A DNA stretch of 64,000 nucleotides from Candidatus Freyrarchaeum guaymasense (lineage in GTDB: Archaea; Asgardarchaeota; Jordarchaeia; Jordarchaeales; Freyrarchaeaceae): assembly GCA_030587405.1 (NCBI GenBank), contig JAUQZD010000020.1:4222-68221 (forward strand), given 5' to 3'. Shown here piece after piece: positions 763 to 62,814 of the stretch (position 1 is its first letter; the number at the start of each line of letters is the position of its first letter). Below the pieces are notes generated by a model. That model was not told the DNA's origin, did no database searches, and saw nothing but the letters and a program-made list of their open reading frames with translations. A program made the translations under genes and the position numbers.

Positions 763-1006
763 CGGAGCACTTAAAAACAGAGGTTCACACGACTTTAAAG
801 CTGCCATGATCCATACGGCTACCTGAGGTTCCTAATAAGTGGAAGGTTATTTGCTGAACAGCTTGCATTCCGGTACAGAACAAGATGGGAGTGCTTAAAG
901 AAAAAACTTGGAGGAAAATAAATTAGAATGGTTAAATAAACACGAAAAATTTAAAGGGGTCTCATTTGAGGGGTTAGAGAGATTAAATTATAGGAGATGG
1001 TGGATC

Positions 1007-2373
1007 TTGGTTCAGACTCAGAGAGGAGAAAAATATGAAATTCGAGACCTAAGCTTAGCGTCAGAAGGGAGGAAAGCTATTAGATGGGCTGAAAACCACA
1101 TGCCTGTTCTACGGATGATCAAAGAGAGGTTTTCTTCAGAAAGGCCGTTAGAAGGAGTTGTTGTCGGGGCATGCTTGCACGTCACGAAGGAGACAGCCGT
1201 TCTAGTTAGGACGCTGCGTGCTGGGGGTGCCGAAGTATACTTGTGCGCGTCAAACCCGTTATCAACGCAAGACCATGTCGCAGCTGCGCTGGTTGAGGAT
1301 GGAATCCACACCTTTGCATGGTATGGGATGGATACTGAAGGGTACTATAGAGCGATAGGCAACGTGATCAAGGCTAAGCCTAACGTGACGTTAGATGACG
1401 GAGCAGATCTTGTTTCAACGATAGCTAAGCTTAAACACGGAGAGAGCGGAGCGGAAGTGGAGATAGTTAAGGGAGTTATTGGAGAAGAGGGGAACTGGTG
1501 GAGTAGTGTTTGGGGTGGAGCTGAGGAGACGACTACTGGAGTTATACGTCTTAGAGCCATGGCTGAGGAGGGCACTCTTCCTTACCCGATACTTGCCACG
1601 AACGACACCCCCACAAAATGGGAAACCTCCCTTTAGAGGGGCCCAAATTCGATAATATATGGGGGACCGGGCAGTCCACACTTGATGGCATAATGAGGGC
1701 GACGTCGGAGCTAATAGCAGGTAAGGTTGTCGTGGTGGCAGGGTATGGCCATTGCGGACGCGGAATAGCTCTCCGCGCTAAGGGTCTCGGCGCTAGGAGG
1801 GTTATAGTAAGTGAGATAAACCCTCATAGGGCTCTCACCGCAGCTCTTGAAGGAATAGATGTAATGCCAATGCATAGGGCAGCTGAAATAGGCGACATAT
1901 TCATCACCGCGACTGGATGTAAGGATGTGATAAGGAAGGAGCACATGGAGAAAATGAAGGATGGGGCGATCTTAGCTAATGCAGGACATTTTGATGTGGA
2001 GATCAATATAAAGGACTTGGAGGAGCTCTCCGTTAAGAAGGAGGAGATACGTCCTAACGTTGAGGAGTACACGTTAAGAAACGGTAGAAGACTTTACTTA
2101 CTTGCCCAAGGACGACTAGTAAACCTTGTCGCAGCTGAGGGGCATCCCAGCTCGGTAATGGATATGAGCTTCAGCGACCAGGCGCTGGCTGTCGAATGGA
2201 TCGTTAAAAATAGAGAAGAACTTGGGAAGGCTGGAAACGTGGTGCTAGACATACCTAAGGAAATAGATATGACTGTAGCAGAATTGAAGTGTAAGGCTCT
2301 TGGTATAGAGCTTGAAAGACTGACGGAGGAACAGGTGGCTTACCTGAAGGGTTGGAGAGAAGGGACGGCGTGA
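1007..2373 (+). CDS. ahcY: S-adenosylhomocysteine hydrolase, interrupted by a 23-nt BHB-type intron
   Basis: Splits S-adenosylhomocysteine into adenosine and homocysteine (methyl cycle) with bound NAD. Two frames are needed: exon 1 (to 1624) carries [16 protein letters not shown] and [10 protein letters not shown]; exon 2 (from 1648) carries [11 protein letters not shown], the NAD fold [15 protein letters not shown] and AAEGHPS. Read straight through, the first frame stops at TAG 1634-1636. Removing 1625-1647 gives [11 protein letters not shown], exactly the family spacing, and a 447-residue protein (family about 410-430). The TTG at 1007 is chosen because GGAG/GGTGG precede it and a TATA-like ATTTAAAG lies at 948-955; the frame is open back to a TTG at 908. 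About 12 residues precede EETTTG that most relatives lack. Confidence 0.9.
1625..1647 (+). other. predicted archaeal mRNA intron (bulge-helix-bulge type) in ahcY
   Basis: Seen in the sequence: TGGG 1619-1622 pairs with CCCA 1642-1645 as a 4-bp central helix. It is flanked by 3-nt bulges AAA 1623-1625 and AAT 1646-1648. Between them CCTC 1626-1629 can pair with GAGG/GGGG at 1638-1641 as an inner hairpin. Known: the archaeal tRNA endonuclease cuts after the second nucleotide of each bulge. That removes 1625-1647 and restores the ahcY frame with the consensus residue spacing. The outer helix is weak, so this is a relaxed motif, as in other archaeal mRNA introns. The AA repeat makes the exact cut ambiguous, but the spliced product is the same. 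Confidence 0.82.
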
Positions 2374-6906: not shown

Positions 6907-7902
6907 ATGTTGATTGGTTGCTTGGAGGGAAAAGATCTTATAACGACTCAGGAATGGCGGGTCGAAGAAATAGAGGAAGTTTTAAAGCTTGCTGCGGACG
7001 TTAAGAAGCATCCCGAAGAATATTCCGATGTTTTAAGTGGTAGGTCTTTGATCATGCTCTTCTTCAACCCAAGTACCAGGACGCGGTTATCGTTTGAGAT
7101 TGGAATGACGCAGCTTGGTGGACACGCAATCTACATGCCTGCTGATTCAGGGTGGATTGGTAAGGGTTCAGAGTCAATTAAGGATACGGCATCCGTGATG
7201 GCACGCTACGGAGATGCAATATCGATAAGGATATTCCCAAACGTTACAGGGTGGAATTACGGTGAGAGTAATAGGGTGGTCAGAGAGTTTGCCCGGTGGG
7301 CGGACGTGCCCGTGATTAACATGGAATGCGACATGTTCCATCCATGCCAAGCTTTAGCCGATATAATGACCGTCAAGGAGAAAAAGGGAAGGTTAAACGG
7401 AAGGAAGTTTCTATTAAGCTGGGTTTATCATCCCAAGCCTCTGCCCTGCAGCGTTCCAAACTCGGCGCTTTTAATAGCGACACGGTTCGGGCTTGATGTG
7501 ACGCTTCTTCACCCCAAGGGGTTTGAGCTAGACGAGCAAATCATGGAGTGGGCGCGGAGGAACATTGAGGAGTCAGGAGGAAGCCTCGAGGTTACTGACA
7601 GCCTTGAGGAGGCTTACGATGGAGCAGACATCGTTTACGTCAAAGCATGGGGTTCCTTAAAGTATTACGGAAACCCTCAAGAGGAAAAAAGGCTAAGGGT
7701 TAAGTTTAGGGATTGGACCTGCAACGAAGAATTAATGGAATTGGCAAGGAAGGACGCGATATTCATGCACTGCCTACCCATAAGAAGGAACGTGGAGGCC
7801 ACGGACGGGGTTATCGACGGGGCTCACTCGGTGATCTACGACGAGGCAGAAAACAGGCTGCATGTCCAGAAAGCGGTGCTAATGTCGGTTATTTCAACGT
7901 AA
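6907..7902 (+). CDS. transcarbamylase of the N-acetylornithine/ornithine carbamoyltransferase group
   Basis: Transfers a carbamoyl group to an ornithine-type substrate in arginine synthesis. The carbamoyl-phosphate loop FFNPSTRTRLSFE and HPCQALAD are present. The second domain follows the N-acetylornithine transcarbamylase pattern (YHPKPL, SVPNSAL, AWGSLKYYGN, HCLPIRRN, DEAENRLHVQKA) instead of the GDGNN and DSMG loops of ordinary OTCase. Where Xanthomonas AOTCase has carboxylated Lys302 (HCLPLRRNVK, from memory), this protein has Glu (HCLPIRRNVE). The ATG at 6907 follows GAGGAGGGTGAA; the frame is open to a GTG at 6886. It converges on the first LysW cluster, overlapping lysK by 9 nt, which fits an arginine role. 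The exact substrate is unknown. Confidence 0.82.
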   Translation: MLIGCLEGKDLITTQEWRVEEIEEVLKLAADVKKHPEEYSDVLSGRSLIMLFFNPSTRTRLSFEIGMTQLGGHAIYMPADSGWIGKGSESIKDTASVMARYGDAISIRIFPNVTGWNYGESNRVVREFARWADVPVINMECDMFHPCQALADIMTVKEKKGRLNGRKFLLSWVYHPKPLPCSVPNSALLIATRFGLDVTLLHPKGFELDEQIMEWARRNIEESGGSLEVTDSLEEAYDGADIVYVKAWGSLKYYGNPQEEKRLRVKFRDWTCNEELMELARKDAIFMHCLPIRRNVEATDGVIDGAHSVIYDEAENRLHVQKAVLMSVIST

Positions 7903-8967
7903 AACATACTGTATGGTTTTTGTCAGTATGTTTATTGCTGCAAGATACTCGCTTACTAGTATGTTCTCGTTTTCGGTGTGTTCTAAGGAAGGGTCACCTG
8001 GACCATAGCTGACAACAGGAATGTTAAACCATTTTCCTATGAGGTTCATGAAGCATGTCCCGGTCTTCTTTATGTACCCTACATTTCCTCCTATTTCCTT
8101 TATAGATCTTTCTAAGGCTTCAACAACCTTGGAACGCCTGTTTGCCCTGAACCCTTCTATCTGGCTTAAAACGCTCCATGAGACCTTCACTCCACTTGCT
8201 TTCTCGAAGCTTTCTATAACCTTGCGGCTTTCACCCAGCAAGCTCGCTGAGCTGACACTTGGGGGAAACCTTACGTCCACGTAAAGAGAACAGTTTCCTG
8301 GAACAATATTCGGCGCGCTCCCTCCCTGAAGAAGTGTTAGATTGGGAATTACCGAGGAAAAACGTGATTTAGCGTCCAGCCTTATACGCTCCTTCAGCTT
8401 CTGCCAGAGTTCAAACGCCTTTTCAATGGAGTTTTCATGCAGCCAAGAGCAGGCAACGTGTCCACTAGACGAATGGACATTTATCTTTAGCAATAGTCTC
8501 CCCTTTGAAGCTATACAAATCCTACTTAGCCCTGTAGGTTCCCCGAATATGGCGTAGTCAACCGAGGTCAGCTCCTCCAGTAGTGTTTGTATGCCCTCTA
8601 GGCTTGCTTCCTCACCGACTATTCCTGCAAAAATTAGGGATCCCTTCATGTTTCTCCGGAAGGCTTCAGCTCCCGCAATCACCATGGCAGCCACGGAGCC
8701 CTTAGCGTCAACTGCACCTCTACCGAATATTCTATCGTTATCGTGTCTTACAGGAATGAAGCCGGGGACCGTGTCTATGTGGGATGCTAGCAGTAAGGTT
8801 GGGCTGCCTTCTCCAAGCCGTCCTATAACGTTTCCAGCAGGGTCTATTTCCACGTCGTAGCCCCAATCTCCCATTGTTTTTTTAAGGAAGAATGCCAGCT
8901 TCCTCTCCTCTCCTGAAGGGCTGGGAATCTCGAGTAGTTCTATGAGGAAGGCTACAGGATCTATCAT
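7894..8967 (-). CDS. lysK: [LysW]-lysine/[LysW]-ornithine hydrolase (cluster 1)
   Basis: M20-family zinc peptidase that frees the finished amino acid from the C-terminal glutamate of the carrier LysW. The metal and catalytic motifs are SHIDTVPGF, RGAVDAKG and GEEASLEG in the N-terminal half; the lid domain follows (SSSGHVACSW), then HTENEN near the C-terminus. Length is 357 residues, usual for LysK. It overlaps lysZ by 4 nt and is the last gene of lysW-X-Y-Z-K. Because this cluster lacks lysJ and faces a transcarbamylase, I infer that ornithine is its product, but the sequence alone does not prove this. Confidence 0.9.
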   Translation of the reverse strand: MIDPVAFLIELLEIPSPSGEERKLAFFLKKTMGDWGYDVEIDPAGNVIGRLGEGSPTLLLASHIDTVPGFIPVRHDNDRIFGRGAVDAKGSVAAMVIAGAEAFRRNMKGSLIFAGIVGEEASLEGIQTLLEELTSVDYAIFGEPTGLSRICIASKGRLLLKINVHSSSGHVACSWLHENSIEKAFELWQKLKERIRLDAKSRFSSVIPNLTLLQGGSAPNIVPGNCSLYVDVRFPPSVSSASLLGESRKVIESFEKASGVKVSWSVLSQIEGFRANRRSKVVEALERSIKEIGGNVGYIKKTGTCFMNLIGKWFNIPVVSYGPGDPSLEHTENENILVSEYLAAINILTKTIQYVLR

Positions 8968-9767
8968 TGGGTGATCACCGTTCCAGATTCAAGTTTAAGC
9001 GAGCGCGTAATGGGGTTTTCCTCTAAGCCACTGCACACCACAACCAGCGGCACCCCAATCCGGATTGCCTCTAAAGCGGCGAAGATCTTCTTTTTCATTC
9101 CGCCTCCTATTTCTTCAATCAGCCTCCTTGCTTCGTTCGCTGTGAGCTTCCTAACTAGTTGCTCGTCTAACATTAACCCCGGGACGTCCGTGACCGATAT
9201 CAACATATTTGCCCCTATCGCTTTAGCCAATTGGGCAGCGGCGCGGTCACCGTCAACGTTGACAAGTTCCCCTTCATGGCTTAACGCTATTGGCGCTATC
9301 ACAGGGGTAAAACCCGATGAAAGGAGGATATTAACAAGCGTTCCATCGACCTCCTCAACTATTCCACTGTAATCGCCTCTTACGACTCGTTTCTTACCGC
9401 CGTCCTGAACTATTAACTTATCTTTCCTTCTAGCTATTAACGTTGGACCGTCAGCTCCTGATATTCCTACCGCTGAAACACCTCGAAACCCTAGCAGTGA
9501 AACTATTTTTTTATTCACATACCCTGCCATTGCTAGGAGGGCGATGTCCCTTGTTTCTTCATCGGTAAACCTGCTTTTGAACCCGCTTGGAGAGGTAAAG
9601 TATATGGGTTCCTTTCCAAGCCTTTTTGAGAGAGAGTCTATTTGAGGTCCGCCTCCATGAACTATAACGATTTTTTTGTCTTTAACGCATGCTGCCACGT
9701 CGTTTACGACGTTCTCTAACCCTTCGCCGGCAATGCTTCCCCCTATTTTAACGATTACTTTCTCCAT
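8964..9767 (-). CDS. lysZ: [LysW]-aminoadipate/glutamate kinase (cluster 1)
   Basis: Amino-acid kinase of the ArgB fold that phosphorylates the side chain of the LysW-bound substrate. The glycine-rich KIGGSIAGEG, VHGGGPQID, GISGADGPTLIAR and NVDGDRAAAQLA motifs are visible. The ATG at 9767 is chosen because the conserved strand EKVIVKIGG begins there; the frame is open to 9806. From this start the protein has 267 residues, matching LysZ. It lies 47 nt after lysY and overlaps lysK by 4 nt. Confidence 0.9.
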   Translation of the reverse strand: MEKVIVKIGGSIAGEGLENVVNDVAACVKDKKIVIVHGGGPQIDSLSKRLGKEPIYFTSPSGFKSRFTDEETRDIALLAMAGYVNKKIVSLLGFRGVSAVGISGADGPTLIARRKDKLIVQDGGKKRVVRGDYSGIVEEVDGTLVNILLSSGFTPVIAPIALSHEGELVNVDGDRAAAQLAKAIGANMLISVTDVPGLMLDEQLVRKLTANEARRLIEEIGGGMKKKIFAALEAIRIGVPLVVVCSGLEENPITRSLKLESGTVITQ

Positions 9768-9814
9768 TTTTGAGCCCATCCCCTTCCAATTTAACCTAAT
9801 TAACATGGAACACT

Positions 9815-10867
9815 TTAGACGGGGTATATTCCGGGGAAGTCGAGGCCTGCGTCTTCTTCGTAGCCGAGCATTATGTTCATATTCTGAATTGCTTGCCCAG
9901 CGGCGCCCTTAATCAAGTTGTCTATGGAGGAGAATATGATGAGCGTTTTTTGATCCTTTAAAAGTTTAAAGCCTAAGTCGCAGTAATTGGTTCCAAGCGT
10001 TATCTTTGGATTTGGAAAACGATACAATCCTCCACTTTTCCAGTGAATGAATCGTATGAACCTTTCTCCACTGTAGCATGACCTAAACGCCTTCCAGACC
10101 GACTGTTCATCCACGTTTTCCATGGTTATGGAGTAAATAGTGGAAAGGATTCCTCGAACCATATCTACCGCATGAGGGACAAAGGTCACTTTCACTTTCC
10201 CGTGTGGAGCTAATGCTTGCTCTATTTCTGGCACGTGACGGTGCTCTCCCGGGCTGTAAGGTCTAACCATGTTCGTTCTTTCAGGATGGTGGTCAGCGGG
10301 TGACGGCGTCCTTCCAGCTCCTGAGCTACCTGTTTTAGCGTCTATGAAAACATGTTCCCTGATTAGCTTTTCTTTTACAAGAGGAAACAGAGCAATGATG
10401 GATGGTGTAGCGAAGCATCCTGGACATGCTACAAGCCTTGCATTCTTTATTTTTTCTCTGTTTATTTCTGGTAGGCCGTAAACGGCTTCGTCTAGGAGGT
10501 CAGGGGCTTTGTGATCCACACCATAGTATCGCTTGAAGATTTCAGGGTTTTTAAGCCTGAAATCACCACTTAAGTCTACTACCTTTATTCCTACCTCGAG
10601 AATTTGAGGCGTTAACTCCATGGAAACCGCGTGGGGTGTAGCCATGAATACGAAGTCGCATTTTTCAATTATCTTAGGGGGATCTGGCTCCTCAAACTTT
10701 ATGTTCAATCTTCCCTTTAGGATTGGTATCTCATTGCTGACGGGTTTTCCAGCATTTCTCCTTGAAGTTACCATGCTTATCGAAACCTTGGGATGAGTGG
10801 AGAGGAGCCTAACGAGCTCGCCACCAGCGTATCCCGATGCACCCACCACTCCAACATTCAAGGACAA
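9815..10867 (-). CDS. lysY: [LysW]-aminoadipyl/glutamyl phosphate reductase (cluster 1)
   Basis: NADPH-dependent reductase (ArgC-like) that turns the LysW-bound acyl phosphate into a semialdehyde. The N-terminus has the Rossmann motif GASGYAGGELVRLL. The catalytic cysteine sits in ACPGCFATPS and the active-site region includes SSGAGR and HHPERTN. The C-terminus has GAAGQAIQNMN. Length is 350 residues, normal for the family. It is the third gene of the minus-strand cluster and has a close paralogue at 58717-59763. Confidence 0.92.
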   Translation of the reverse strand: MSLNVGVVGASGYAGGELVRLLSTHPKVSISMVTSRRNAGKPVSNEIPILKGRLNIKFEEPDPPKIIEKCDFVFMATPHAVSMELTPQILEVGIKVVDLSGDFRLKNPEIFKRYYGVDHKAPDLLDEAVYGLPEINREKIKNARLVACPGCFATPSIIALFPLVKEKLIREHVFIDAKTGSSGAGRTPSPADHHPERTNMVRPYSPGEHRHVPEIEQALAPHGKVKVTFVPHAVDMVRGILSTIYSITMENVDEQSVWKAFRSCYSGERFIRFIHWKSGGLYRFPNPKITLGTNYCDLGFKLLKDQKTLIIFSSIDNLIKGAAGQAIQNMNIMLGYEEDAGLDFPGIYPV

Positions 10868-10938
10868 GCACTCTCCTTAAGTAAAATTGAGAAAACCGTG
10901 AAAAGGTGCTTTGAATGATAACGCAAACAATGAAGAAT

Positions 10939-11790
10939 TCACTTAGAGGCCTTGTGTTTTAAATAATCAATTATTTTTTCAGCTATGTCGACTTTTGTTA
11001 CGGAGGCTATGTGCTGGAAACCTGGGTTATGATTTACCTCATTAAGCAAGAAGATACCGTCTCCTTCAAGGAGATCAACGCCGACGATCTCACTGTGAGT
11101 GGCTTCAGCCGCCTTCAAGGCCATTTCTTCTATCTCTCCTGTTATCCTGCAAGCCTCCGTTTTCCCTCCGATAGTAGCATTGCTTCTCCAGTCACCGGGG
11201 ATGGTGTACCTGTACATTGCCGCCACGGCTTCGCCACCTACAATAAACACTCTTACATCTCTTGAGTTGTGATTAACGTATTCTTGAAGATAATATATTT
11301 TATGGAGGACGTCGCCTAACGTTTCACGCGTTTCAAGTATGGCCCTTGCTGAGGCAGGGTCGTTTAAGATGGCTACCAAGCGCCCCCAGCTACCCATTAA
11401 AGGCTTCGTTATCGCAGGATAGCCTAGTTCTTCTAGCGCTTCTAGAGCAGCATTATATGATAAGGCAAGGTATGTTTTAGGTACGGGGAGTCCTGCCTGC
11501 TTTAATGCTATAGTTGTCTTCAGCTTGTCACCACAAACCTCCTGACACTTAGATGAATTAACTACTTGATATCCCATCGCTTCTAACGCTAACGTTGAGT
11601 ATAGCCCTTTTGTGTAGCTAATCGATCTTTGGAGGAAAAGGTCTACGTTATACAGGGATTTATCTCCTGTTACATCTATGCTCATCCGTCTGCTGTCGAA
11701 GAGTGAAACATCTACTTTCTTCTTTTTTGCAGCTTCTATTAACTGCTTCTCCTCCCATCCTATCCTATTATGTATTATCCCTAAGATCAT
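10939..11790 (-). CDS. lysX: [LysW] amino-acid ligase, RimK-like ATP-grasp (cluster 1)
   Basis: ATP-grasp ligase that attaches aminoadipate or glutamate to the C-terminal Glu of LysW. ATP-grasp motifs include TKPLMGSWGRLVA, YLQEYVNH and the metal-binding end LLNEVNHNPGF. After NEVNH this copy reads NPGF, while the second copy (57863-58720) reads TVEF, close to what I remember for Thermus LysX. The difference falls near the substrate side and suggests different amino-acid specificity, possibly glutamate here; this is an inference. Length 283 residues. It starts 4 nt after lysW ends. Confidence 0.87.
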   Translation of the reverse strand: MILGIIHNRIGWEEKQLIEAAKKKKVDVSLFDSRRMSIDVTGDKSLYNVDLFLQRSISYTKGLYSTLALEAMGYQVVNSSKCQEVCGDKLKTTIALKQAGLPVPKTYLALSYNAALEALEELGYPAITKPLMGSWGRLVAILNDPASARAILETRETLGDVLHKIYYLQEYVNHNSRDVRVFIVGGEAVAAMYRYTIPGDWRSNATIGGKTEACRITGEIEEMALKAAEATHSEIVGVDLLEGDGIFLLNEVNHNPGFQHIASVTKVDIAEKIIDYLKHKASK

Positions 11791-24322: not shown

Positions 24323-25678
24323 CTACTTTAGTTCCCCTTGGAGGATTAAATATCCGTTGTATGGTTCTCTATCCGTTATTTCTCCGGATATGCTGTGGGT
24401 CATCAGCTTTTTCACTTCTTCGTGATCTCTTGTATGACCTAGAACGTAAATTAGTTTGACATATGCTACTTCTGGGAGCATATTTCCACAGGGAATGACT
24501 CCTATCTTCAACAGGTCACGTCCTCTTTCGTATACGTTCATTCCTACAAAGCCATAGAGACATTGAGAAGTCATTGCAACTGCTATGCCTTCCTCTATAG
24601 CTCTTTCAAGGGATGGAAGTATTGTTTTAGGGCAGTGTCCAAGGCCTGTTCCGGCAAGCACTATTCCATGATAACCCGTGTCAATTATGTGCTCTATCAG
24701 GTCTGCTTGCATTCCAGGGTATGTGTAGAGTAAGACAACTTTCGGGTCAATTTTCGTGTCCGCCGTAACAATCCTTTGGTTGCTTCTGCGCCTGTAATCG
24801 TTTCTAAACATCTTTATTTTACCGTCCGCAACCATTCCTAAAGGTATGTCACCTATCGTTTTGAATGTGTCCCTCCTGCTCGTGTGCATTTTTCTGACCC
24901 TAGTGCCTCTATGGATTAGATTGTACTCATCACTGCTGCTTCCATGCATACAAACAACGACTTCGGCTATGTCACTTCTAGCCGCCACCGTGGCAGAAGA
25001 GATTAAATTTATTGCCGCGTCACTTGAGGGCCTGTCGCTGCTTCTTTGGCTTCCAACCAGTACTACTGGAACTGAAAGGTTTTTTAGCATGAACGAGAGG
25101 GCGGCTGACGTGAAGTGCATGGTATCGGTTCCGTGAGCCACTATGACGCCGTCAGCTCCTTCGTTTACCTCTTTAGCGACTGCTTCCGCTATTTTCACCC
25201 AGTATTCGGGTTGCATGTCTTCTGAAAAAATTTCGAGAAGAGAGAGGGTTTTTAGATTGCATATGTCTTCAAGTTCTGGGACGGCGCTGAAAAGCTCTTG
25301 GGGGGTGAACGCGGGAATCACGGCTCCGGTTCGGTAGTCCAATCTACTTGCCACGGTTCCTCCTGTCCCAATTAAGGCAACCGTCGGCTTTTTTGGATCA
25401 AAGGAAACATCTCTTTCTGGTAGGGCATAATGACTTGGACTATAACCCAACTCTTCTATGATTGTTTCCTCTGAAATTCTCACCCCAATGTTATAGCCAG
25501 TTTTAAGCTTTAGGACCACGTGCCGGTCGTCTCCTAGCTCGCTCCTTGGGAGAAGGATCCCCTCGTATGTGGTGTCAGGATTCACTACCCTAACAACACT
25601 CCACACCTTCACTTTAGCCTCTTCAAGTTTACGCTTGGCAAAACCGCGGTATCCTGGTAGCTTATCTTTAGGAGCCAT
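24323..25678 (-). CDS. gatD: glutamyl-tRNA(Gln) amidotransferase subunit D
   Basis: Asparaginase-like subunit that supplies ammonia from glutamine or asparagine to convert Glu-tRNA-Gln into Gln-tRNA-Gln in archaea. An N-terminal beta-barrel (residues 1-80) is followed by the L-asparaginase fold with IGTGGTVASRLDY (catalytic Thr) and VAHGTDTMHFT (second Thr, Asp), then GTGLGHCP. Length 451 residues, typical for GatD. The ATG at 25678 overlaps the end of gatE by 11 nt, so the two are a coupled operon gatE-gatD. Confidence 0.95.
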   Translation of the reverse strand: MAPKDKLPGYRGFAKRKLEEAKVKVWSVVRVVNPDTTYEGILLPRSELGDDRHVVLKLKTGYNIGVRISEETIIEELGYSPSHYALPERDVSFDPKKPTVALIGTGGTVASRLDYRTGAVIPAFTPQELFSAVPELEDICNLKTLSLLEIFSEDMQPEYWVKIAEAVAKEVNEGADGVIVAHGTDTMHFTSAALSFMLKNLSVPVVLVGSQRSSDRPSSDAAINLISSATVAARSDIAEVVVCMHGSSSDEYNLIHRGTRVRKMHTSRRDTFKTIGDIPLGMVADGKIKMFRNDYRRRSNQRIVTADTKIDPKVVLLYTYPGMQADLIEHIIDTGYHGIVLAGTGLGHCPKTILPSLERAIEEGIAVAMTSQCLYGFVGMNVYERGRDLLKIGVIPCGNMLPEVAYVKLIYVLGHTRDHEEVKKLMTHSISGEITDREPYNGYLILQGELK

Positions 25679-27617
25679 GCTTTATCACCTCGCTGATTTT
25701 TGCCTTTAAAAGCTCAGCGACCGTTTTACCATCGATTTTCCCTCTAACTTGCTTCATGACGGCGCCCATGAGAGGACTGAACGCTCTTTCACCTTTACTT
25801 ATAATTAAACTCATGTTACTTTCGACAACCTTGCTAATTATCTCTTCAAGTTCCTCCTTGGAGAGAGGCTTTATGCCTAACGCGTTTAATGCATCATCCA
25901 AGTTAGAAGGCTTCTCAGCCAGCTTAGCTAGTAGCTGCGGTATGGCTTCCTTAGCTATCTTACCTTCCGACAGGTATTTGAAGACTCCATTAAAGTCTTC
26001 CCTAGTAAGGTTCTCTACGGGTACCCCTTCCCGTTCCAGGCCTCTAACCGTTTGTAGAAGGGTTGACGCTACTAAGACCGGATCAACCCGGTACGATTCA
26101 ACTATTTCTTTAAATATTTCTGCTTTCTCTTCAAGTATTAGTTCTTCCGCGAACTCGCTGCTTATGCCGTATTTCTTAGCAAGCTTCTCCTTTAGGACCC
26201 ACGGATACTCTGGCAGTTGACTTGCCACCCTACGTTTCCATTCAGGGTTTATTATTATGGGGGGAGTATCGGTGTCAGGGTAGAGGCGGGCGCCTCCATG
26301 AAGTTCTCTAAGAAACTCGCTGTTACCGTTTTCTAGCGCCCTTCTGGTTTCATTTGGGACTCCCTTAAGGGAAAGGCGAGCCCTCTTAACAACGACTTCT
26401 AAGGCTTTCTTTCCCATCTCCTCAGGGGCTTTCACTAGTACGAAGGCATCATTGTCATCTAATTCTAGGGCGAGACGTAAGGCGTCTGCTTCTTGAGGGG
26501 AAACACCATATTTTTCGAGGTTTTCATCGGAGTGTATTATCTCAGCTATTCCTGTTATGGCTCGAACCTTGTCAGCGAGCTCTTTGCCGAACCTTCTACC
26601 CGGTTGAACCTCCATGCCTAGGAGACCGGAGAACTTGGGGAGACGAACGGCTAAAATTCTCTCATTTCCTTTTCTTTTTAGGATCTTAGACCGTGTCTCT
26701 CTAAATTTTTCCGTTACGTCTTTAACGTCTAACTTGTATTCGTCTTCCTTAGCGCCTCTATGTAAAAGCTCGTCTCGTATCTTTAGAAGACTAAGCTGGC
26801 GAATCACTTCGTTTCTAGCTAGTTTAGGAAGCCATTCAAGCTTCTGAACGCCCTTAATCTCTACCCTTGCTCCCCCCCTTATGCTGACGTTTATGTCCTG
26901 CCTTATGGTTCCGATTCCTCTTTTCACCTTTCCTGTGCTTCTGAGGAGGAGGCCTATGCGGAAAGCGGTTTCTAGGAGTTCCTCTGGTGTTTCAATGTCA
27001 GGACTTGTCACTATCTCAACTAGTGGTATTCCAAGCCGGTCAAGCCTGTAGTAGACTGTTTTCCCCTCCTCTTTCACCTTCCGTGCAGCGTCTTCCTCTA
27101 TACATATGGTTTCGATTCCGACTTCTTTACCATTTACAGGGATCCTGCCGTTTAACCCTATAACTAAAGTGCGCTGAAAGCCGCATGGTACGGAGCCGTC
27201 AAGATAATTTTTCCTGCACACGTGAAGTTCGTCAACAATGTTAGCCTTCAGGAGGAGGGCTAGTTCTAGCCCTATTTCAAGCGCTTCAGTGGATATCTCG
27301 AATGGGGGTGTTTGACGCGTACATGCAATTCACATGTACGTTTCGTCTATTTCGTAGCTACAGGTTGTATCATTGTATCCTTCATATATTACCGTTCTTC
27401 CTTTCTCGTATTCTGCCAGCATAGCGGCATCAAACTCGCCCATTTCTCCGAGGACAGGTCGGAAGAACCTTCTAATGGTAAAGTGGGGTGGATCGCTTCT
27501 AAGTATGGGTGGACAGTGGCAGAAAAGTTTACGAGAGGTACGGAGTTCCTGGTGTATTTCCAAGCCGGCTTTAAAGCCAACTGCCTTATAATCGATTTCC
27601 CGTGCTGAAACGTCCAA
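25668..27617 (-). CDS. gatE: glutamyl-tRNA(Gln) amidotransferase subunit E, interrupted by a 30-nt BHB-type intron
   Basis: tRNA-binding, GatB-like subunit of the archaeal GatDE amidotransferase. Exon 1 (27617-27342) carries GFKAGLEIHQEL, KLFCHCP and YEIDE; exon 2 (27311-25668) begins TPPFE and carries EALEIGLELALLLKA, CGFQRT, LVEIVTSPDIETPEE, the AspRS-like insert and the YqeY-like tail. Read straight through, the frame stops at TGA two codons after DETY. Splicing out 27312-27341 gives EIDE-TPPFE, as in GatE relatives, and 639 residues (family about 630). The TTG at 27617 is favoured by GAGGTG six nucleotides upstream; GTG 27626 is an alternative. Divergent from elp3; coupled to gatD. Confidence 0.93.
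27312..27341 (-). other. predicted archaeal mRNA intron (bulge-helix-bulge type) in gatE
   Basis: On the minus strand, GACG (27347-27344) pairs with CGTC (27317-27314) as a 4-bp central helix. It is flanked by two AAA bulges (27343-27341 and 27313-27311). The inner part is a perfect 8-bp hairpin, CGTACATG with CATGTACG, and a 7-nt loop TGAATTG. Cutting after the second A of each bulge, as the tRNA endonuclease does, removes 30 nt that include the in-frame TGA and joins GAC GAA to ACA CCC. The outer helix is absent or weak, so the motif is of the relaxed type. Confidence 0.9.
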
Positions 27618-27764
27618 GGGGTTCACCTCGCGCTTGGTAATTCCAAGAACTCCTAAAGAAGAGATCACGTAATAAATATGACCAATGAAAGTAAAATCCG
27701 TGTAGCACAAAGAGTTTATATTTTACCCTTTCGAAGAGAACAGTACTATGAGGGGTGCCGGTTA

Positions 27765-57862: not shown

Positions 57863-58720
57863 TTGATTACGGTGGGCCTCATATGTGACAGGGTTCGATG
57901 GGATGAAAAAGCGTTAATAAGAGCAGTCGAGAAGAGAGGGGCTAAGCCGATAATCATAGATCAAAAAAGCATTTTCCTAGACTTAACCGGTAACTTAGAT
58001 AATGTGCCTGAAGTGGATGTCTACCTTCAGCGGAGTGTAAGTACGATCAAAGGGCTTTACATATCAAAACTCCTTGAGGAGAAGGGGCACATTGTAATAA
58101 ACTCTTTTGAGGCTTCTAGGATCTGTGCTGACAAGGTTCTTACCACGTTGGCTCTGGCTAGGGAGGGCATTCCAACTCCCCACACCCTAATAGCATTTGA
58201 TGTTGACTCAGCTCTTAGAGCATTAGAAAAACTAGGATACCCGGCAGTCATAAAACCTACCTTGGGAAGTTGGGGTCGGCTGGTAGCGCCGTTAAAGGAT
58301 CCTCAGACAGCAAGGGCCATCTTAGAGGATAGGGTTTTCATGGGGGCTCTTTACCAGACATTTTATCTTCAAGAGTATGTTGAGAAGGAGATGAATAGGG
58401 ACATAAGAAGTTTCGTTGTAGGAGACAGAGTGGTGGCAGCCATCTATAGGGTTGCAGCGGAAGGAGAGTTGAGAACGAATACTGCCCTAGGAGGAAGAGC
58501 AGAGCCTTGCCCGGTAACAGCTGAAATAGAGGAGTTAAGCTTGAGGGCTGCTAAGGCTGTAGGCGGAGACGGGGTCTATGGCATCGACATACTAGCAGGG
58601 CCTAATGGGATGATGGTTAACGAGGTGAACCACACTGTAGAGTTCCACACAACAGTTCCTGTGACGGGAATAGACATTCCAGGGATGATAATTGACTATG
58701 TTTTGGAGAGGGTAAAATGA
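57863..58720 (+). CDS. lysX: [LysW] amino-acid ligase (cluster 2)
   Basis: ATP-grasp ligase paralogous to cluster-1 LysX (RimK-like). KPTLGSWGRLVA, FYLQEYVEKE and VNEVNHTVEFHTT are present. The TVEF after NEVNH resembles Thermus LysX, which uses aminoadipate, whereas cluster 1 has NPGF. With LysJ present in this cluster, lysine synthesis is the more likely role. 285 residues. TTG start 57863; the end overlaps lysY by 4 nt. Confidence 0.88.
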   Translation: MITVGLICDRVRWDEKALIRAVEKRGAKPIIIDQKSIFLDLTGNLDNVPEVDVYLQRSVSTIKGLYISKLLEEKGHIVINSFEASRICADKVLTTLALAREGIPTPHTLIAFDVDSALRALEKLGYPAVIKPTLGSWGRLVAPLKDPQTARAILEDRVFMGALYQTFYLQEYVEKEMNRDIRSFVVGDRVVAAIYRVAAEGELRTNTALGGRAEPCPVTAEIEELSLRAAKAVGGDGVYGIDILAGPNGMMVNEVNHTVEFHTTVPVTGIDIPGMIIDYVLERVK

Positions 58721-59763
58721 GGGTTGGCATAGTTGGAGGGTCAGGGTATACCGGAGGAGAGCTTCTCAGACTGCTTTGCATGCATCCTAAAGTTGAAGTA
58801 ACCTATGTCACCTCAAGGCGATATGCGGGGAAATTCATTGGAGACGTCCACCCGAACCTTAGGAAGCTCGTGAATATAAAGTTTGAAGAGTACGACGTCA
58901 CGTTGGCTTCGGAGAAGTGCGACTATGTGTTCATGGCTGTGCCTCACAGATCGTCGATGAAGTTAACTCCTGACTTATTAGATGTTGGGTTAAAGGTCAT
59001 AGACTTAAGTGCGGACTTCAGGCTGAAGGATAAGGTGGCCTACGAGAAATATTACGGGGGGCATGAGAGGCCTGAGTTACTTGAAGAAGCCGTGTATGGT
59101 TTACCTGAACTACACAGGGAAGAATTGAGGGGGGCGAGGCTGGTCGCGTGCCCCGGATGCATCGCTGTGAGTGCTATTTTAGGGGCAGCACCCATAGTGG
59201 CATCGTTCAGTATCGACCCCGAAAGAATAGTTGTTGATGCTAAAATAGGCTCCTCCGCAGCCGGCAGGGAGGCAACAGAGTCAACACATCACCCTGAAAG
59301 GGTGGGCGTTGTCAGACCTTACAAGGTGACGGGGCATAGGCATACGGCCGAAATAGAGCAGGAGCTTTCGATGGTGACGGGTAGGCAGGTGAAGGTGGCT
59401 CTCTCAGCTCATTCCATTGACATGGTTAGGGGGATCCTGTCTACAATACATTTTTTCTTGGACGAGCTGCCGGAGGAGAAGGACGTCTGGAGGGCGTTCA
59501 GGGCGTTTTATGGTAACGAGCCCTTTGTCCGGATAGTTAAACAGAAAACGGGACTTTACAGGCTTCCTAACCCAAAGGCGGTTGTAGGCTCCAACTTTTG
59601 CGATGTTGGATTTGAGCTGGACCCTCACGCTTCGAGGCTGGTGGTTCTATCAGCTTTAGACAACCTTGTTAAGGGTGCTGCTGGACAGGCTGTTCAGTGC
59701 ATGAATGTGATGGAGGGCTGGGATGAGGCGCTCGGACTGAACGCTCCAAGCATCTTCCCGTGA
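58717..59763 (+). CDS. lysY: [LysW]-aminoadipyl/glutamyl phosphate reductase (cluster 2)
   Basis: ArgC-type reductase. GGSGYTGGELLRLL at the N-terminus, catalytic Cys in ACPGCIAVSAIL, SSAAGREATESTHHPER, and GAAGQAVQCMN at the end. 348 residues. It overlaps lysX by 4 nt, and lysZ starts 10 nt after. Paralogue at 9815-10867. Confidence 0.93.
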   Translation: MRVGIVGGSGYTGGELLRLLCMHPKVEVTYVTSRRYAGKFIGDVHPNLRKLVNIKFEEYDVTLASEKCDYVFMAVPHRSSMKLTPDLLDVGLKVIDLSADFRLKDKVAYEKYYGGHERPELLEEAVYGLPELHREELRGARLVACPGCIAVSAILGAAPIVASFSIDPERIVVDAKIGSSAAGREATESTHHPERVGVVRPYKVTGHRHTAEIEQELSMVTGRQVKVALSAHSIDMVRGILSTIHFFLDELPEEKDVWRAFRAFYGNEPFVRIVKQKTGLYRLPNPKAVVGSNFCDVGFELDPHASRLVVLSALDNLVKGAAGQAVQCMNVMEGWDEALGLNAPSIFP

Positions 59764-59772
59764 GGCGGTAGC

Positions 59773-60579
59773 TTGAGGCTGGTTGTTAAAATAGGTGGAA
59801 GCGTATTAGACCGAGATATAAGCGACATTGCAAGGGATGTCAGAGGGTTAAGGGATCATGGAGAAGAGGTCGTCCTCGTCCATGGCGGTGCAAGAAAGGT
59901 CACAGAGGTAGCTGAGAGAATGGGGAAAAAGCAGAGGTTTGTACTTTCCGTAAGCGGGTTTAGAAGCAGATACACGGATAAGGAAACAGCCGAGATTTAC
60001 ACGATGGTGATAAGCGGACTGTTAAACAAGCATATTGTTGCCTCACTAAGTAGGGAAGGAGTGCGGAGCGTAGGTCTTTCCGGAATAGACGGGTTCCTCA
60101 TTAAGGCTGAAAGGAAAGAACGAATAAAGGTTAGAGAGGGAGGAAAAGTTATTTTGGTCGATGGAGACTATACTGGCAAGATAGTTGAGGTGAACAGGGG
60201 TCTTCTGGGTTGCCTGCTTAGTGCAGGTTATGTACCGGTTATAGGATCCGTTGCGATAGGGCAGGAGGGCGAGTTCCTGAACGTAGACGGAGACAGGGCT
60301 GCTGCCAGCGTTGCAGGAGCGATAGGAGCGGACGTGTTGGTGCTCCTAACTGACGTACCAGGGGTCCTGGACGGAGGAAAACTCGTTAGAATGCTTAGCA
60401 GGAGCGAAGCAAGACTTACCGTCCCGAAGCTTGAGGGCGGAATGAGAAGGAAGGTTTTCGCGGCGTTGGAGGCGTTAGATGCAGGCGTTAAGAAGGTTTT
60501 TATTTCTTCGGGACTAGGTCCCGAGCCTATAACGAGTACTTTAAGGGGAAAAGAGTGTACGGTGATAGTTAATGAGTAA
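59773..60579 (+). CDS. lysZ: [LysW]-aminoadipate/glutamate kinase (cluster 2)
   Basis: ArgB-fold kinase with KIGGSVLDRD, VHGGARKV, GLSGIDGFLIKA and NVDGDRAAASVA. The glycine-rich VHGG is followed by A instead of the GPQ found in cluster 1, another difference between the paralogues. 268 residues from TTG 59773. It overlaps lysJ by 8 nt. Confidence 0.92.
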   Translation: MRLVVKIGGSVLDRDISDIARDVRGLRDHGEEVVLVHGGARKVTEVAERMGKKQRFVLSVSGFRSRYTDKETAEIYTMVISGLLNKHIVASLSREGVRSVGLSGIDGFLIKAERKERIKVREGGKVILVDGDYTGKIVEVNRGLLGCLLSAGYVPVIGSVAIGQEGEFLNVDGDRAAASVAGAIGADVLVLLTDVPGVLDGGKLVRMLSRSEARLTVPKLEGGMRRKVFAALEALDAGVKKVFISSGLGPEPITSTLRGKECTVIVNE

Positions 60580-61756
60580 GCTAAGCAGGGAGAAAATTAT
60601 AGAGTTCGAGGAGCGGTATCAAGCCAAAACGTACTCTAAAAGGCCGGTTGTCATAGTTAAGGGGAGTGGAGCCATAGTCTGGGATGAAAATGGGAGAGAA
60701 TACATAGACTGCGTGGGCGGGCATGGTGTTTGCGTTGTTGGACACTGCCATCCAAAGGTAGTTGAGGCAATAAGGGAGCAAGCAGAGCGGCTGATCACCT
60801 GTCCTGGAATATTTTACAATGATGCTCGGGCTGAGCTGGTAGAAAAACTTGTCAAGATCGCCCCAAAAGGGCTCAATAGGGTTTTCCTATGTAACAGCGG
60901 GGCTGAAGCCGTTGAATGCGCTATAAAGCTTGCTAGGAAGTATACTGGAAAGAAGGGGATAATAGCAACGGTCAAGGGATTCCACGGTAGGACTATGGGT
61001 GCGTTATCTGCGACTTGGGAGGCAAAGTATAGGAAGCCGTTCGAGCCGCTTGTTCCAGGATTCACTCATGTCCCCTTTGGAGACGCTGAAGCTGTAAGGG
61101 CCGCGATCAACAATGAGACAGCAGCCGTGCTTGTTGAGCCGATCCAGGGGGAGGGAGGAGTCAACGTTCCTCCTAGAGAGTACTTAAAGGAGCTAAGGGA
61201 AATCTGCGATGAAAAAGGTGTCTTACTGATCTTCGATGAGGTTCAAACCGGATTTGGGAGAACGGGGGAAATGTTTGCGTGCATGCACTGGAACGTCGTA
61301 CCAGACGTGATGACCGTGGCGAAGGCTATAGCTGGAGGAGTACCCATGGGGGCAACGCTGGCAAGAGAGGATGTCATGTTATCCCTTAAGGAGACGGAGC
61401 ACGCCTCTACGTTCGGAGGGAACCCGCTGGCGTGCGCCGCCGCGAACGCGGCGATAGACGTTATAGTTGAGGAGAGACTCCCTGAAAGGGCAAGAAAGCT
61501 GGGTGGGATCCTCAAGGAAGATTTGGATGAAATGAAGGAGAGCTCTAAGCTTATCAGGATGGTTCGAGGTTTAGGACTTATGATTGGCGTTGAACTCCGC
61601 CTGAGATGCAGAGAGTATGTGTTTAAAGCTATGGAGAGAGGCATCCTTCTTTTAACCTCCGGGCTTAACGTGATACGGCTTCTCCCTCCATTAGTCATCG
61701 AAGAGGAACAGGTAAGGAGAGTTTCTCAAGTTCTCTCTGAAGTACTGGTGATGTGA
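60572..61756 (+). CDS. lysJ: [LysW]-aminoadipate semialdehyde/glutamate semialdehyde transaminase
   Basis: PLP-dependent class III aminotransferase that gives the amino group to the LysW-bound semialdehyde. PLP signatures: VGHCHPKVVEAI, FLCNSGAEAVECAIKLARK, FDEVQTGFGRTG, the PLP lysine in TVAKAIAGGVPMGA. 394 residues. It is the only transaminase of this family in the window: cluster 1 lacks it, so one LysJ probably serves both clusters, as known in Sulfolobus. Confidence 0.94.
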   Translation: MSKLSREKIIEFEERYQAKTYSKRPVVIVKGSGAIVWDENGREYIDCVGGHGVCVVGHCHPKVVEAIREQAERLITCPGIFYNDARAELVEKLVKIAPKGLNRVFLCNSGAEAVECAIKLARKYTGKKGIIATVKGFHGRTMGALSATWEAKYRKPFEPLVPGFTHVPFGDAEAVRAAINNETAAVLVEPIQGEGGVNVPPREYLKELREICDEKGVLLIFDEVQTGFGRTGEMFACMHWNVVPDVMTVAKAIAGGVPMGATLAREDVMLSLKETEHASTFGGNPLACAAANAAIDVIVEERLPERARKLGGILKEDLDEMKESSKLIRMVRGLGLMIGVELRLRCREYVFKAMERGILLLTSGLNVIRLLPPLVIEEEQVRRVSQVLSEVLVM

Positions 61757-62814
61757 GATTGAATCCGGTCGACTTTCTTAAGAGGATGCTTGAAATCTAT
61801 AGTCCAACGGGGGAGGAAGAGGAGCTGGCAACCTTCCTCTTAGAGGAAATGGAGAGAGACGGTTTTGACGCTAAAATGGATGGTGTAGGGAACGTAGTGG
61901 GAAAGTTAGGTGACGGGAAACCGAGGCTTCTCTTATGCGGACACATGGATACGGTTCCAGGGTTCCTCCCTGTAAAGGTCTTAGGGGGGGAGGTAACTGG
62001 TAGGGGGGCTGTCGACGCTAAGGGTCCATTGGCCGCCATGGTCATGGCGGCTAAAAAAGTGGCGAATACGCCATTGAACGGAACGTTAATTGTTTCAGGG
62101 GTTGTCGACGAAGAAGGAAGTTCTAGAGGTGTTAAGGAATTGATATCTTCAGGTGTGGAGGCGGAGTATGCCGTTTTCGGGGAGCCAAGCAATGCTAGGA
62201 ACGTAGTCATCGGGTATAAAGGGAACGTTCATGTTTCGGTGAACGTGAGAGTTAAACCAGGTCACCCGGCAAATCCAAACGTGAAGAATGCATCGGAGGA
62301 AATAATAAAAATTTGGGGGATGATAAAGGAGAAAATTAAGCCGTTAGAGGAGAAAACGCCCTTAAGATCGCTTTCCTGCTCGATAGAGTCCATAAGTGGG
62401 GGAAGGAGTAGGGCTAGAATAGACTTATCGTTAAGGGTTCCCTTCGGAATGAGATGCAAGTATGCGGTCGATATCGTTGAAAACACAGTTAAATCGAGTG
62501 GGAGTGAAGATGTTAAATGCTGGTTAGAGGTGGCTGATGCCGTCGAACCATACGAGTCTAATAAGCACTCTCGCCTTGTGACTGCCTTCAGGAAATCTGT
62601 GAAGGATTTTTTCGGTGAAGAACCTCGCTTAATAAGGAAGACTGGGACAGGAGATATGAACTACTACGGAAACCATTTTAGGAGGGCTGACGTCGTCACC
62701 TATGGACCAGGGGATCCACGCTTAGACCATACCGAGGAGGAGAGAATCAACATACACGATTACTTGAAATCTATAGGAGTTCTTGAGCAGGTTATTAAAC
62801 GCCTACTTCTTTAA
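61753..62814 (+). CDS. lysK: [LysW]-lysine/ornithine hydrolase (cluster 2)
   Basis: M20 metallopeptidase with CGHMDTVPGFLP, RGAVDAKGPLA, VVDEEGSSRG and HTEEERIN. It releases the amino acid from LysW. 353 residues; overlaps lysJ by 4 nt. The next gene is convergent (62825-63796) with 10 nt between. Paralogue at 7894-8967. Confidence 0.93.
   Translation: MRLNPVDFLKRMLEIYSPTGEEEELATFLLEEMERDGFDAKMDGVGNVVGKLGDGKPRLLLCGHMDTVPGFLPVKVLGGEVTGRGAVDAKGPLAAMVMAAKKVANTPLNGTLIVSGVVDEEGSSRGVKELISSGVEAEYAVFGEPSNARNVVIGYKGNVHVSVNVRVKPGHPANPNVKNASEEIIKIWGMIKEKIKPLEEKTPLRSLSCSIESISGGRSRARIDLSLRVPFGMRCKYAVDIVENTVKSSGSEDVKCWLEVADAVEPYESNKHSRLVTAFRKSVKDFFGEEPRLIRKTGTGDMNYYGNHFRRADVVTYGPGDPRLDHTEEERINIHDYLKSIGVLEQVIKRLLL

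What the first reader, a model, noticed from the sequence alone, without database searches (positions are those of the whole stretch)
27311..27347. A 30-nt archaeal mRNA intron splits gatE with a textbook BHB core
Seen: 4-bp GACG/CGTC, two AAA bulges, a perfect 8-bp inner hairpin. Canonical cuts remove 27312-27341, including the in-frame TGA, and join EIDE to TPPFE as the GatE family requires. The insert length is a multiple of 3, so the reason to splice is the stop codon. Essential for Gln-tRNA formation, so splicing must work.
Basis: partly seen in the sequence, partly recalled or inferred. Interest (0 to 1): 0.94.

Follow-up and report, generated by a model that had tools for sequence, protein, structure and literature searches.

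The report
Conserved mRNA intron splits Asgard gatE
In all ten Jordarchaeia (Asgard archaea) examined, the gene for GatE, a protein that likely helps make glutamine-tRNA, is interrupted at one spot by a 29-35-letter hairpin with a stop codon that is predicted to be cut out of the messenger RNA by the tRNA-splicing enzymes, and six other genes, in some species including the gene of the likely joining enzyme itself, carry the same kind of insert.

Summary
Confirmed and extended. The 30-nt insert at 27312-27341 (minus strand) splits gatE with a 4-bp central helix, two AAA bulges, an 8-bp inner helix and an in-frame TGA; cutting after the second A of each bulge gives YEIDETPPFE. The window is from the Asgard class Jordarchaeia. 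All nine related genomes examined carry an insert at the same codon boundary (29-35 nt; three lengths shift the frame), with compensatory changes in both helices (97.7% of cells paired; 0 of 500 shuffles reach the covariation score). Five other Asgard gatE loci lack it; two further Asgard genomes have a different BHB insert 5 nt upstream. The same geometry splits ahcY in this window and, in relatives, cbf5, kae1, pcm, a NuoD/hydrogenase-type gene (one genome) and, in one subclade, rtcB, the presumed ligase: 48 inserts read, central helix 4/4 in 43, 3/4 in 5. The cbf5 site is the one known from crenarchaea, where others showed splicing. Relatives encode two endonuclease subunit types and RtcB. 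Not fully textbook: the window lacks the outer helix (relaxed motif). No transcript was seen, and a de novo scan did not beat decoys, so introns per genome stay uncounted.

The parts
27342..27710 (-). gatE exon 1 (open frame; start codon not resolved, family match begins about residue 38 of this frame)
   Evidence: TIGR00134 positions 1-86
27312..27341 (-). 30-nt predicted intron
   Evidence: same-site inserts in nine relatives
27344..27347 (-). central helix, 5' strand GACG (in exon 1)
   Evidence: covariation
27341..27343 (-). 5' bulge AA|A with predicted cut between 27342 and 27341
27333..27340 (-). inner helix, 5' strand CGTACATG
27330..27332 (-). in-frame TGA in the loop
27318..27325 (-). 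inner helix, 3' strand CATGTACG
27314..27317 (-). central helix, 3' strand CGTC (in the intron)
27311..27313 (-). 3' bulge AA|A with predicted cut between 27312 and 27311
25668..27311 (-). gatE exon 2
   Evidence: TIGR00134 positions 88-621
24323..25678 (-). gatD, the partner subunit, overlapping the end of gatE
   Evidence: TIGR02153 over cut-off
908..1624 (+). ahcY exon 1 (start codon not checked)
   Evidence: TIGR00936 positions 1-179
1625..1647 (+). second predicted intron in the window, 23 nt, frame-shifting, central helix TGGG/CCCA, in ahcY
1648..2373 (+). ahcY exon 2
   Evidence: TIGR00936 positions 180-416

Best explanation
The 30 nt at 27312-27341 (minus strand) form a bulge-helix-bulge hairpin with an in-frame TGA inside gatE and are likely removed from the mRNA as an archaeal pre-mRNA intron, predicted to be cut by a two-subunit (alpha-beta)2 tRNA-splicing endonuclease and sealed by RtcB. 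By the rule known for archaeal introns the cuts fall after the second base of each 3-nt bulge, joining GAA to ACA and giving an uninterrupted GatE. Until it is spliced, translation would end at the stop codon after roughly the first 90 residues. Shown here: the anatomy, same-site inserts in ten Jordarchaeal gatE genes, covariation of both helices, the restored protein, and endonuclease and RtcB genes in relatives. Inferred: that the RNA is spliced at all, which proteins do it, and that the stop serves to prevent a faulty protein.
For: Structure and fold; GatE model positions 1-86 and 88-621 meet at the insert; joined protein fits seven homologues, read-through adds ten gap positions; inserts at the same boundary in 10 of 10 Jordarchaeal gatE genes; 97.7% of cells paired, 7 of 13 pairs changed on both sides, covariation score 0.508 against 0.269 in shuffles, 0 of 500 as high; lengths 29, 31 and 35 in three relatives need a frame repair as well; five other Asgard loci and one Aenigmatarchaeal locus read straight through; the same geometry in ahcY, cbf5, kae1, pcm, rtcB and a NuoD/hydrogenase-type gene; the cbf5 site equals the crenarchaeal one; two endonuclease types and RtcB in relatives.
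Against: No transcript was examined. The window has no outer helix. Single-sequence folds are unremarkable for several relatives (G007 z -0.38, G003 -1.63 with a central helix that differs from the 4-bp one; window ahcY -0.70). De novo scans for the motif next to broken frames gave no excess over shifted cut sites. The window's own genome is not held, so its endonuclease and ligase could not be looked for; alpha subunits were not found in G001 and G002, nor RtcB in G002.
Confidence: 0.93

Rival explanations
1. The ribosome skips the hairpin (translational bypass, as in phage T4 gene 60 or the byp elements of yeast mitochondria, both recalled), and no RNA is cut.
For: A hairpin with a stop codon just after the take-off point and a restored downstream frame is also what a bypass element looks like.
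Against: The inserts lie in all three codon phases (gatE 0 and 1, cbf5 1, kae1 2, pcm 1, ahcY 0, rtcB 0), and pairing is kept between exon and insert with 3-nt bulges at both cuts; re-pairing of a codon does not ask for that. At the same cbf5 site, splicing of RNA was reported in crenarchaea (PMC2738675).
Confidence: 0.03
2. The stop codon is read through or recoded and GatE carries a ten-residue insert.
For: The insert of the window is 30 nt, a multiple of three, with one TGA.
Against: Relatives have 29, 31 and 35 nt and mostly TAG; two have TAG and TAA. Intact homologues lack the residues.
Confidence: 0.01
3. GatE is made as two separate chains from two genes, and the hairpin only ends or starts translation.
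For: Databases list the C-terminal part as a protein of its own.
Against: The listed starts differ between relatives and lie inside the insert or far into the conserved domain; compensatory changes keep the exon GAYG paired with the end of the insert, which a two-chain gene does not need.
Confidence: 0.02
4. The gene is a pseudogene or the insert is an assembly error.
For: All the genomes that I could name are metagenome bins; stops and frame shifts are what decay looks like.
Against: Ten separately assembled genomes share the site with compensated changes, and both exons stay conserved (53-58% identity to seven full-length homologues).
Confidence: 0.01

Closest known systems
cbf5 pre-mRNA intron of Desulfurococcales and Sulfolobales (Watanabe 2002, cited; Yokobori 2009, PMC2738675)
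   Same: BHB-type hairpin across the exon-intron borders, cuts between second and third bulge base, mostly relaxed motif, small intron, presence and loss among relatives; [quoted passage not shown]
   Different: Different gene (gatE) and different phylum; several genes per lineage here, in some species rtcB itself; inserts down to 13 nt. Splicing was shown there by cDNA, not here.
BHB introns of archaeal tRNA and rRNA
   Same: Same 3-nt bulge, 4-bp helix, 3-nt bulge geometry and presumably the same enzymes; PMC11291895 (passages) reports introns in 92-95% of tRNA genes of three Asgard genomes, one of them a Freyarchaeon (= Jordarchaeon).
   Different: In tRNA the structure of the tRNA supplies the outer helix; here the flanks are coding sequence and the window has no outer helix.
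HAC1/XBP1 mRNA splicing of eukaryotes (recalled; also named in passages of PMC4090602)
   Same: Non-spliceosomal mRNA splicing sealed by a tRNA ligase.
   Different: Cut by Ire1 and regulated by stress; no BHB endonuclease.

Membership tests
Archaeal BHB pre-mRNA intron | 4-bp central helix flanked by two 3-nt bulges on opposite strands | tested here: met
   48 inserts with 4/4 (43) or 3/4 (5) central pairs
Archaeal BHB pre-mRNA intron | Cuts between second and third bulge base restore the conserved protein | tested here: met
   in silico only:
Archaeal BHB pre-mRNA intron | Pairing kept by compensatory changes | tested here: met
   gatE of ten genomes
Archaeal BHB pre-mRNA intron | Endonuclease of broad specificity (catalytic plus non-catalytic subunit) encoded | tested here: inconclusive
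   Two PF01974 matches in 7 of 9 relatives, one in G001 and G002; of 12 of the 16 matches read, seven have Tyr/His/Lys and five lack the His. Assembly and activity untested; the window's own genome is not held.
Archaeal BHB pre-mRNA intron | RtcB ligase encoded | tested here: met
   10 of 11 genomes searched, not G002; not testable in the window's own genome
Archaeal BHB pre-mRNA intron | Spliced transcript | not testable with these tools
   no RNA data at hand
Strict (hBHBh') BHB motif | Outer helix next to the bulges | tested here: not met
   no contiguous outer pairs in the window; three-pair GAG/CTC further out in the folds of G001, G002, G005 and G009. G166 gatE has 4 outer pairs.
Group I/II or other catalytic RNA intron | Match to an Rfam model | tested here: not met
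   0 matches in the window at gathering score; 30 nt is far too short

The most novel reading that the evidence does not exclude
Jordarchaeia run a lineage-wide, non-spliceosomal mRNA splicing system: introns of 13-59 nt sit in conserved motifs of at least seven protein genes (gatE, cbf5, kae1, ahcY, pcm, rtcB and a NuoD/hydrogenase-type gene), some as old as the class, and in one family the RNA ligase RtcB must help to splice its own mRNA, an autogenous loop that ties ligase level to splicing capacity. The cbf5 intron, at the same base as in crenarchaea, may predate the split of the two lineages.
Probability: 0.5. Interest if true: 0.94.

Novelty: new member of a known kind. Interest (0 to 1): 0.87.

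Why it matters
A review of 2016 calls archaeal pre-mRNA introns confined to cbf5 of some crenarchaea (PMC4810243, passages). Here the presumed same machinery interrupts several core genes across an Asgard class, the archaeal group nearest to eukaryotes. It means that databases hold these proteins truncated (GatE), that tRNA-type splicing may serve mRNAs on a broader scale in cells without a nucleus, and it gives a concrete system for asking how such cells avoid translating unspliced mRNA: all 15 inserts whose length is a multiple of three are blocked by an in-frame stop (for 14; the fifteenth forms TGA across its 3' border). The rtcB insert makes a ligase feedback loop testable.

Tried and rejected
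De novo count of introns: scans of G007:C1 1-1080000 and the window for BHB plus open frames gave as many hits for shifted cut sites as for the true ones at nearly all settings, and the hits I read are mostly operon junctions, so I give no number per genome. Candidates recognised by eye in these lists (cbf5, pcm, kae1, the NuoD/hydrogenase-type gene) were kept because family searches back them; the last was read in G007 alone, where the NuoD model is matched at 3-63 and 73-281.

Other stops in gatE seen (G083, G071, G015) lie elsewhere in the gene and were not pursued. kae1 of G006, G166 and G010 gave no peptide-correct junction (G010 is a full-length match without stops); two pcm copies of G166 gave none and were left out, as were the genomes whose ahcY or rtcB is contiguous. 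ARAGORN found no tRNA gene in the window and 2 in 54 stretches of G007; I suspect introns that break detection and did not test it.

Stop readthrough, selenocysteine and pyrrolysine: rejected because three relatives have frame-shifting lengths and most have TAG. Intein: rejected, ten codons with a stop. My early notes give G002 34 nt; one search gives 35. The GatE tree supports each Jordarchaeal family but leaves open whether the two are sisters.

Full report
What is there. On the minus strand the gatE frame runs from an open frame beginning at 27710 to CSYEIDE (ending at 27342), is interrupted by 30 nt (27341-27312), and goes on as TPPFEIS to 25668. GACG of the exon pairs with CGTC at the end of the insert; between them lies an 8-bp hairpin; an AAA bulge follows each strand of the central helix. 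The minimum-energy fold is this structure (-15.8 kcal/mol, z -3.97; z -3.34). The two frames match the GatE model TIGR00134 at 1-86 and 88-621 of 622. Cutting after the second A of each bulge gives DE-TP; the joined protein aligns over 632-636 columns with seven full-length homologues (53-58% identity; the one alignment printed, to P0012, has no gap at the junction), and reading through instead adds exactly ten gap positions in each of the seven. gatD lies next to it.

Whose genome. GatE exon 2 finds loci named Candidatus Jordarchaeum, Jordarchaeia and Freyarchaeota (L001, L002, L008 at 73-74%). PMC11291895 (passages) says that Freyarchaeia and Jordarchaeia name the same group. A GatE tree puts the window as sister of G001, G002, G006 and G007 (the five: 100/100) with G003, G004, G005, G008 and G009 as a second group (100/100); whether the two groups are sisters is left open. 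No whole genome is held for the window.

Conservation of the insert. The 8 genomes held in the class, G005 and the window, 10 of 10, have an insert at the same codon boundary. Lengths are 29 (G006), 30 (seven), 31 (G007) and 35 nt (G002). The central helix is GACG/CGTC in four, GATG/CATC in two, GATG/CGTC in one, GATG/CATT in two, and GACG/CGCT with one A-C mismatch in G007; the inner helix changes likewise. On the alignment, 97.7% of cells pair, 7 of 13 pairs change on both sides, and no shuffle of 500 reaches the percentage paired, the number of covarying pairs or cells, or the score; the number of further pair types is not exceptional (97 of 500), and sliding the partners drops pairing to at most 50.8%. 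Related sequences inflate such counts, but two groups with different pairs and G007 with a third set are hard to explain otherwise. GatE of one Helarchaeal, one Odinarchaeal and three Lokiarchaeal loci and of an Aenigmatarchaeal one reads straight through. A degenerate pattern of the insert, too narrow for G007-G009, occurs once in each of six of 227 Asgard genomes, each time in gatE. In the protein database the Jordarchaeal GatE entries listed are 469-564 aa against about 640.

A second gatE insert. In a phylum-wide search of 227 genomes (220 with a match; list cut, so other cases may be hidden), G010 and G166 also have a split gatE. Their inserts, 35 and 41 nt, lie in phase 1 inside the codon of the D of VEAD-(E/D)EPPH, 5 nt upstream of the Jordarchaeal site; G166 has 4 outer pairs too, G010 one mismatch in the central helix. 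Fifteen protein clusters closest to G166 are 517-572 aa long, the next ones about 637. So the same stretch of gatE was interrupted twice, or one intron has moved.

Not only gatE. The window's ahcY is split too: model TIGR00936 is matched at 1-179 and 180-416 by two overlapping frames, bridged by a 23-nt insert at 1625-1647 with TGGG/CCCA that shifts the frame. G003 and G004 have 34- and 27-nt inserts at the same place with different inner helices; G001, G002, G006 and G007 read TKW(E/D)FDN straight through. One loss on the branch to these four is the simplest history. In relatives the same geometry splits cbf5 (11 of 11 genomes, phase 1, 29-41 nt), kae1 (8 genomes, phase 2, 13-30 nt), pcm (8 genomes, phase 1, 29-32 nt), rtcB (5 genomes, phase 0, 30 nt, in LPD-AHQGYG; contiguous in G001, G006, G007, G010, G166) and a NuoD/FpoD/hydrogenase-type gene in G007, the only genome read for it (59 nt). 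Of 48 inserts the central helix is 4/4 in 43 and 3/4 in 5. Shuffling the letters of the insert, with the same freedom of register, reaches the observed central helix in 8% of shuffles on average and, together with an inner helix of at least min(4, observed) pairs, in 3.5% or less for each insert. The 48 are not independent, and the best register was chosen for each.

The bridge to known biology. PMC2738675 (abstract and outline, section 3, section 8 part 1 and passages; [quoted passage not shown] Ours is G|A(T/C) of GTL-D-P, the same place, in Jordarchaeia and in G010 and G166.

Machinery. Nine genomes searched hold PF01974 endonucleases, two each in seven and one each in G001 and G002. Of the 16 matches 12 were read: seven have the Tyr, His and Lys expected of catalytic subunits, five lack the His (residues from recall). 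One of the first type matches PDB chains 3p1z_B and 3ajv_B best (Aeropyrum pernix by recall), one of the second 5x89_A and 1a79_A. PMC6379350 (passages) says that only (alpha-beta)2 and epsilon2 enzymes remove relaxed-BHB introns efficiently, and that one (alpha-beta)2 enzyme does so poorly. RtcB is found in 10 of 11 genomes.

Stops. Of 15 inserts with a length divisible by three, 14 have an in-frame stop inside and the last (kae1 of G005) forms TGA across its 3' border (stop also). The others shift the frame. That stops are kept so that unspliced mRNA is not translated is inference; the way inserts were found favours such cases.

What is not shown. No RNA. The number of introns per genome: de novo scans did not beat decoys. 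Folds of single sequences stand out for some (window, G002, G009) and not for others (G007; G003, whose best fold lacks the 4-bp central helix; window ahcY).

Known or new. Searches of open-access PubMed Central listed no paper that I recognised as reporting mRNA introns in Asgard archaea or in gatE. PMC4810243 (passages) calls archaeal pre-mRNA introns confined to cbf5 of some crenarchaea; PMC7714728 (passages) cites one mRNA with a BHB motif and adds one mRNA cleaved in Haloferax; PMC12918454, PMC12397907 and PMC4090602 (passages) showed nothing on gatE. Subscription papers may hold more; I recall RNA-seq studies with a few further candidates and did not check them. I file the insert as a new member of the archaeal BHB pre-mRNA introns; the one defining feature left untested is spliced RNA.

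Noticed in passing
window 1625-1647 (+): Second predicted BHB intron in this window, 23 nt, splitting ahcY; present in G003 and G004, absent in G001, G002, G006 and G007.
   Followed up: yes
L172, L174-L177 (rtcB of G005, G003, G008, G009, G004): The gene of the presumed splicing ligase RtcB itself carries a 30-nt BHB-type insert with an in-frame stop; contiguous in G001, G006, G007, G010 and G166.
   Followed up: partly
L158, L159, L160 (kae1 of G001, G007, G002): BHB-type inserts of only 14, 14 and 13 nt in kae1.
   Followed up: partly
L161, L163 (kae1 of G008): Family matches (80-153 and 126-323 in different pieces) suggest a second break further downstream.
   Followed up: no
L079 (G083), L080 (G071), L081 (G015): gatE with a single in-frame TGA, TAG or TAA elsewhere in the gene, unexplained.
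   Followed up: no
L006 / G005: A bin named Sigynarchaeota carries Jordarchaeal gatE and the Jordarchaeal inserts in cbf5, kae1 and rtcB; probably mislabelled or mixed.
   Followed up: no
window 7894-11790 (-) and 57863-62814 (+): Two gene sets that look alike (LysX-, ArgC/LysY-, LysZ- and LysK-like, the second with an aminotransferase) in one window; names from reading and recall.
   Followed up: no
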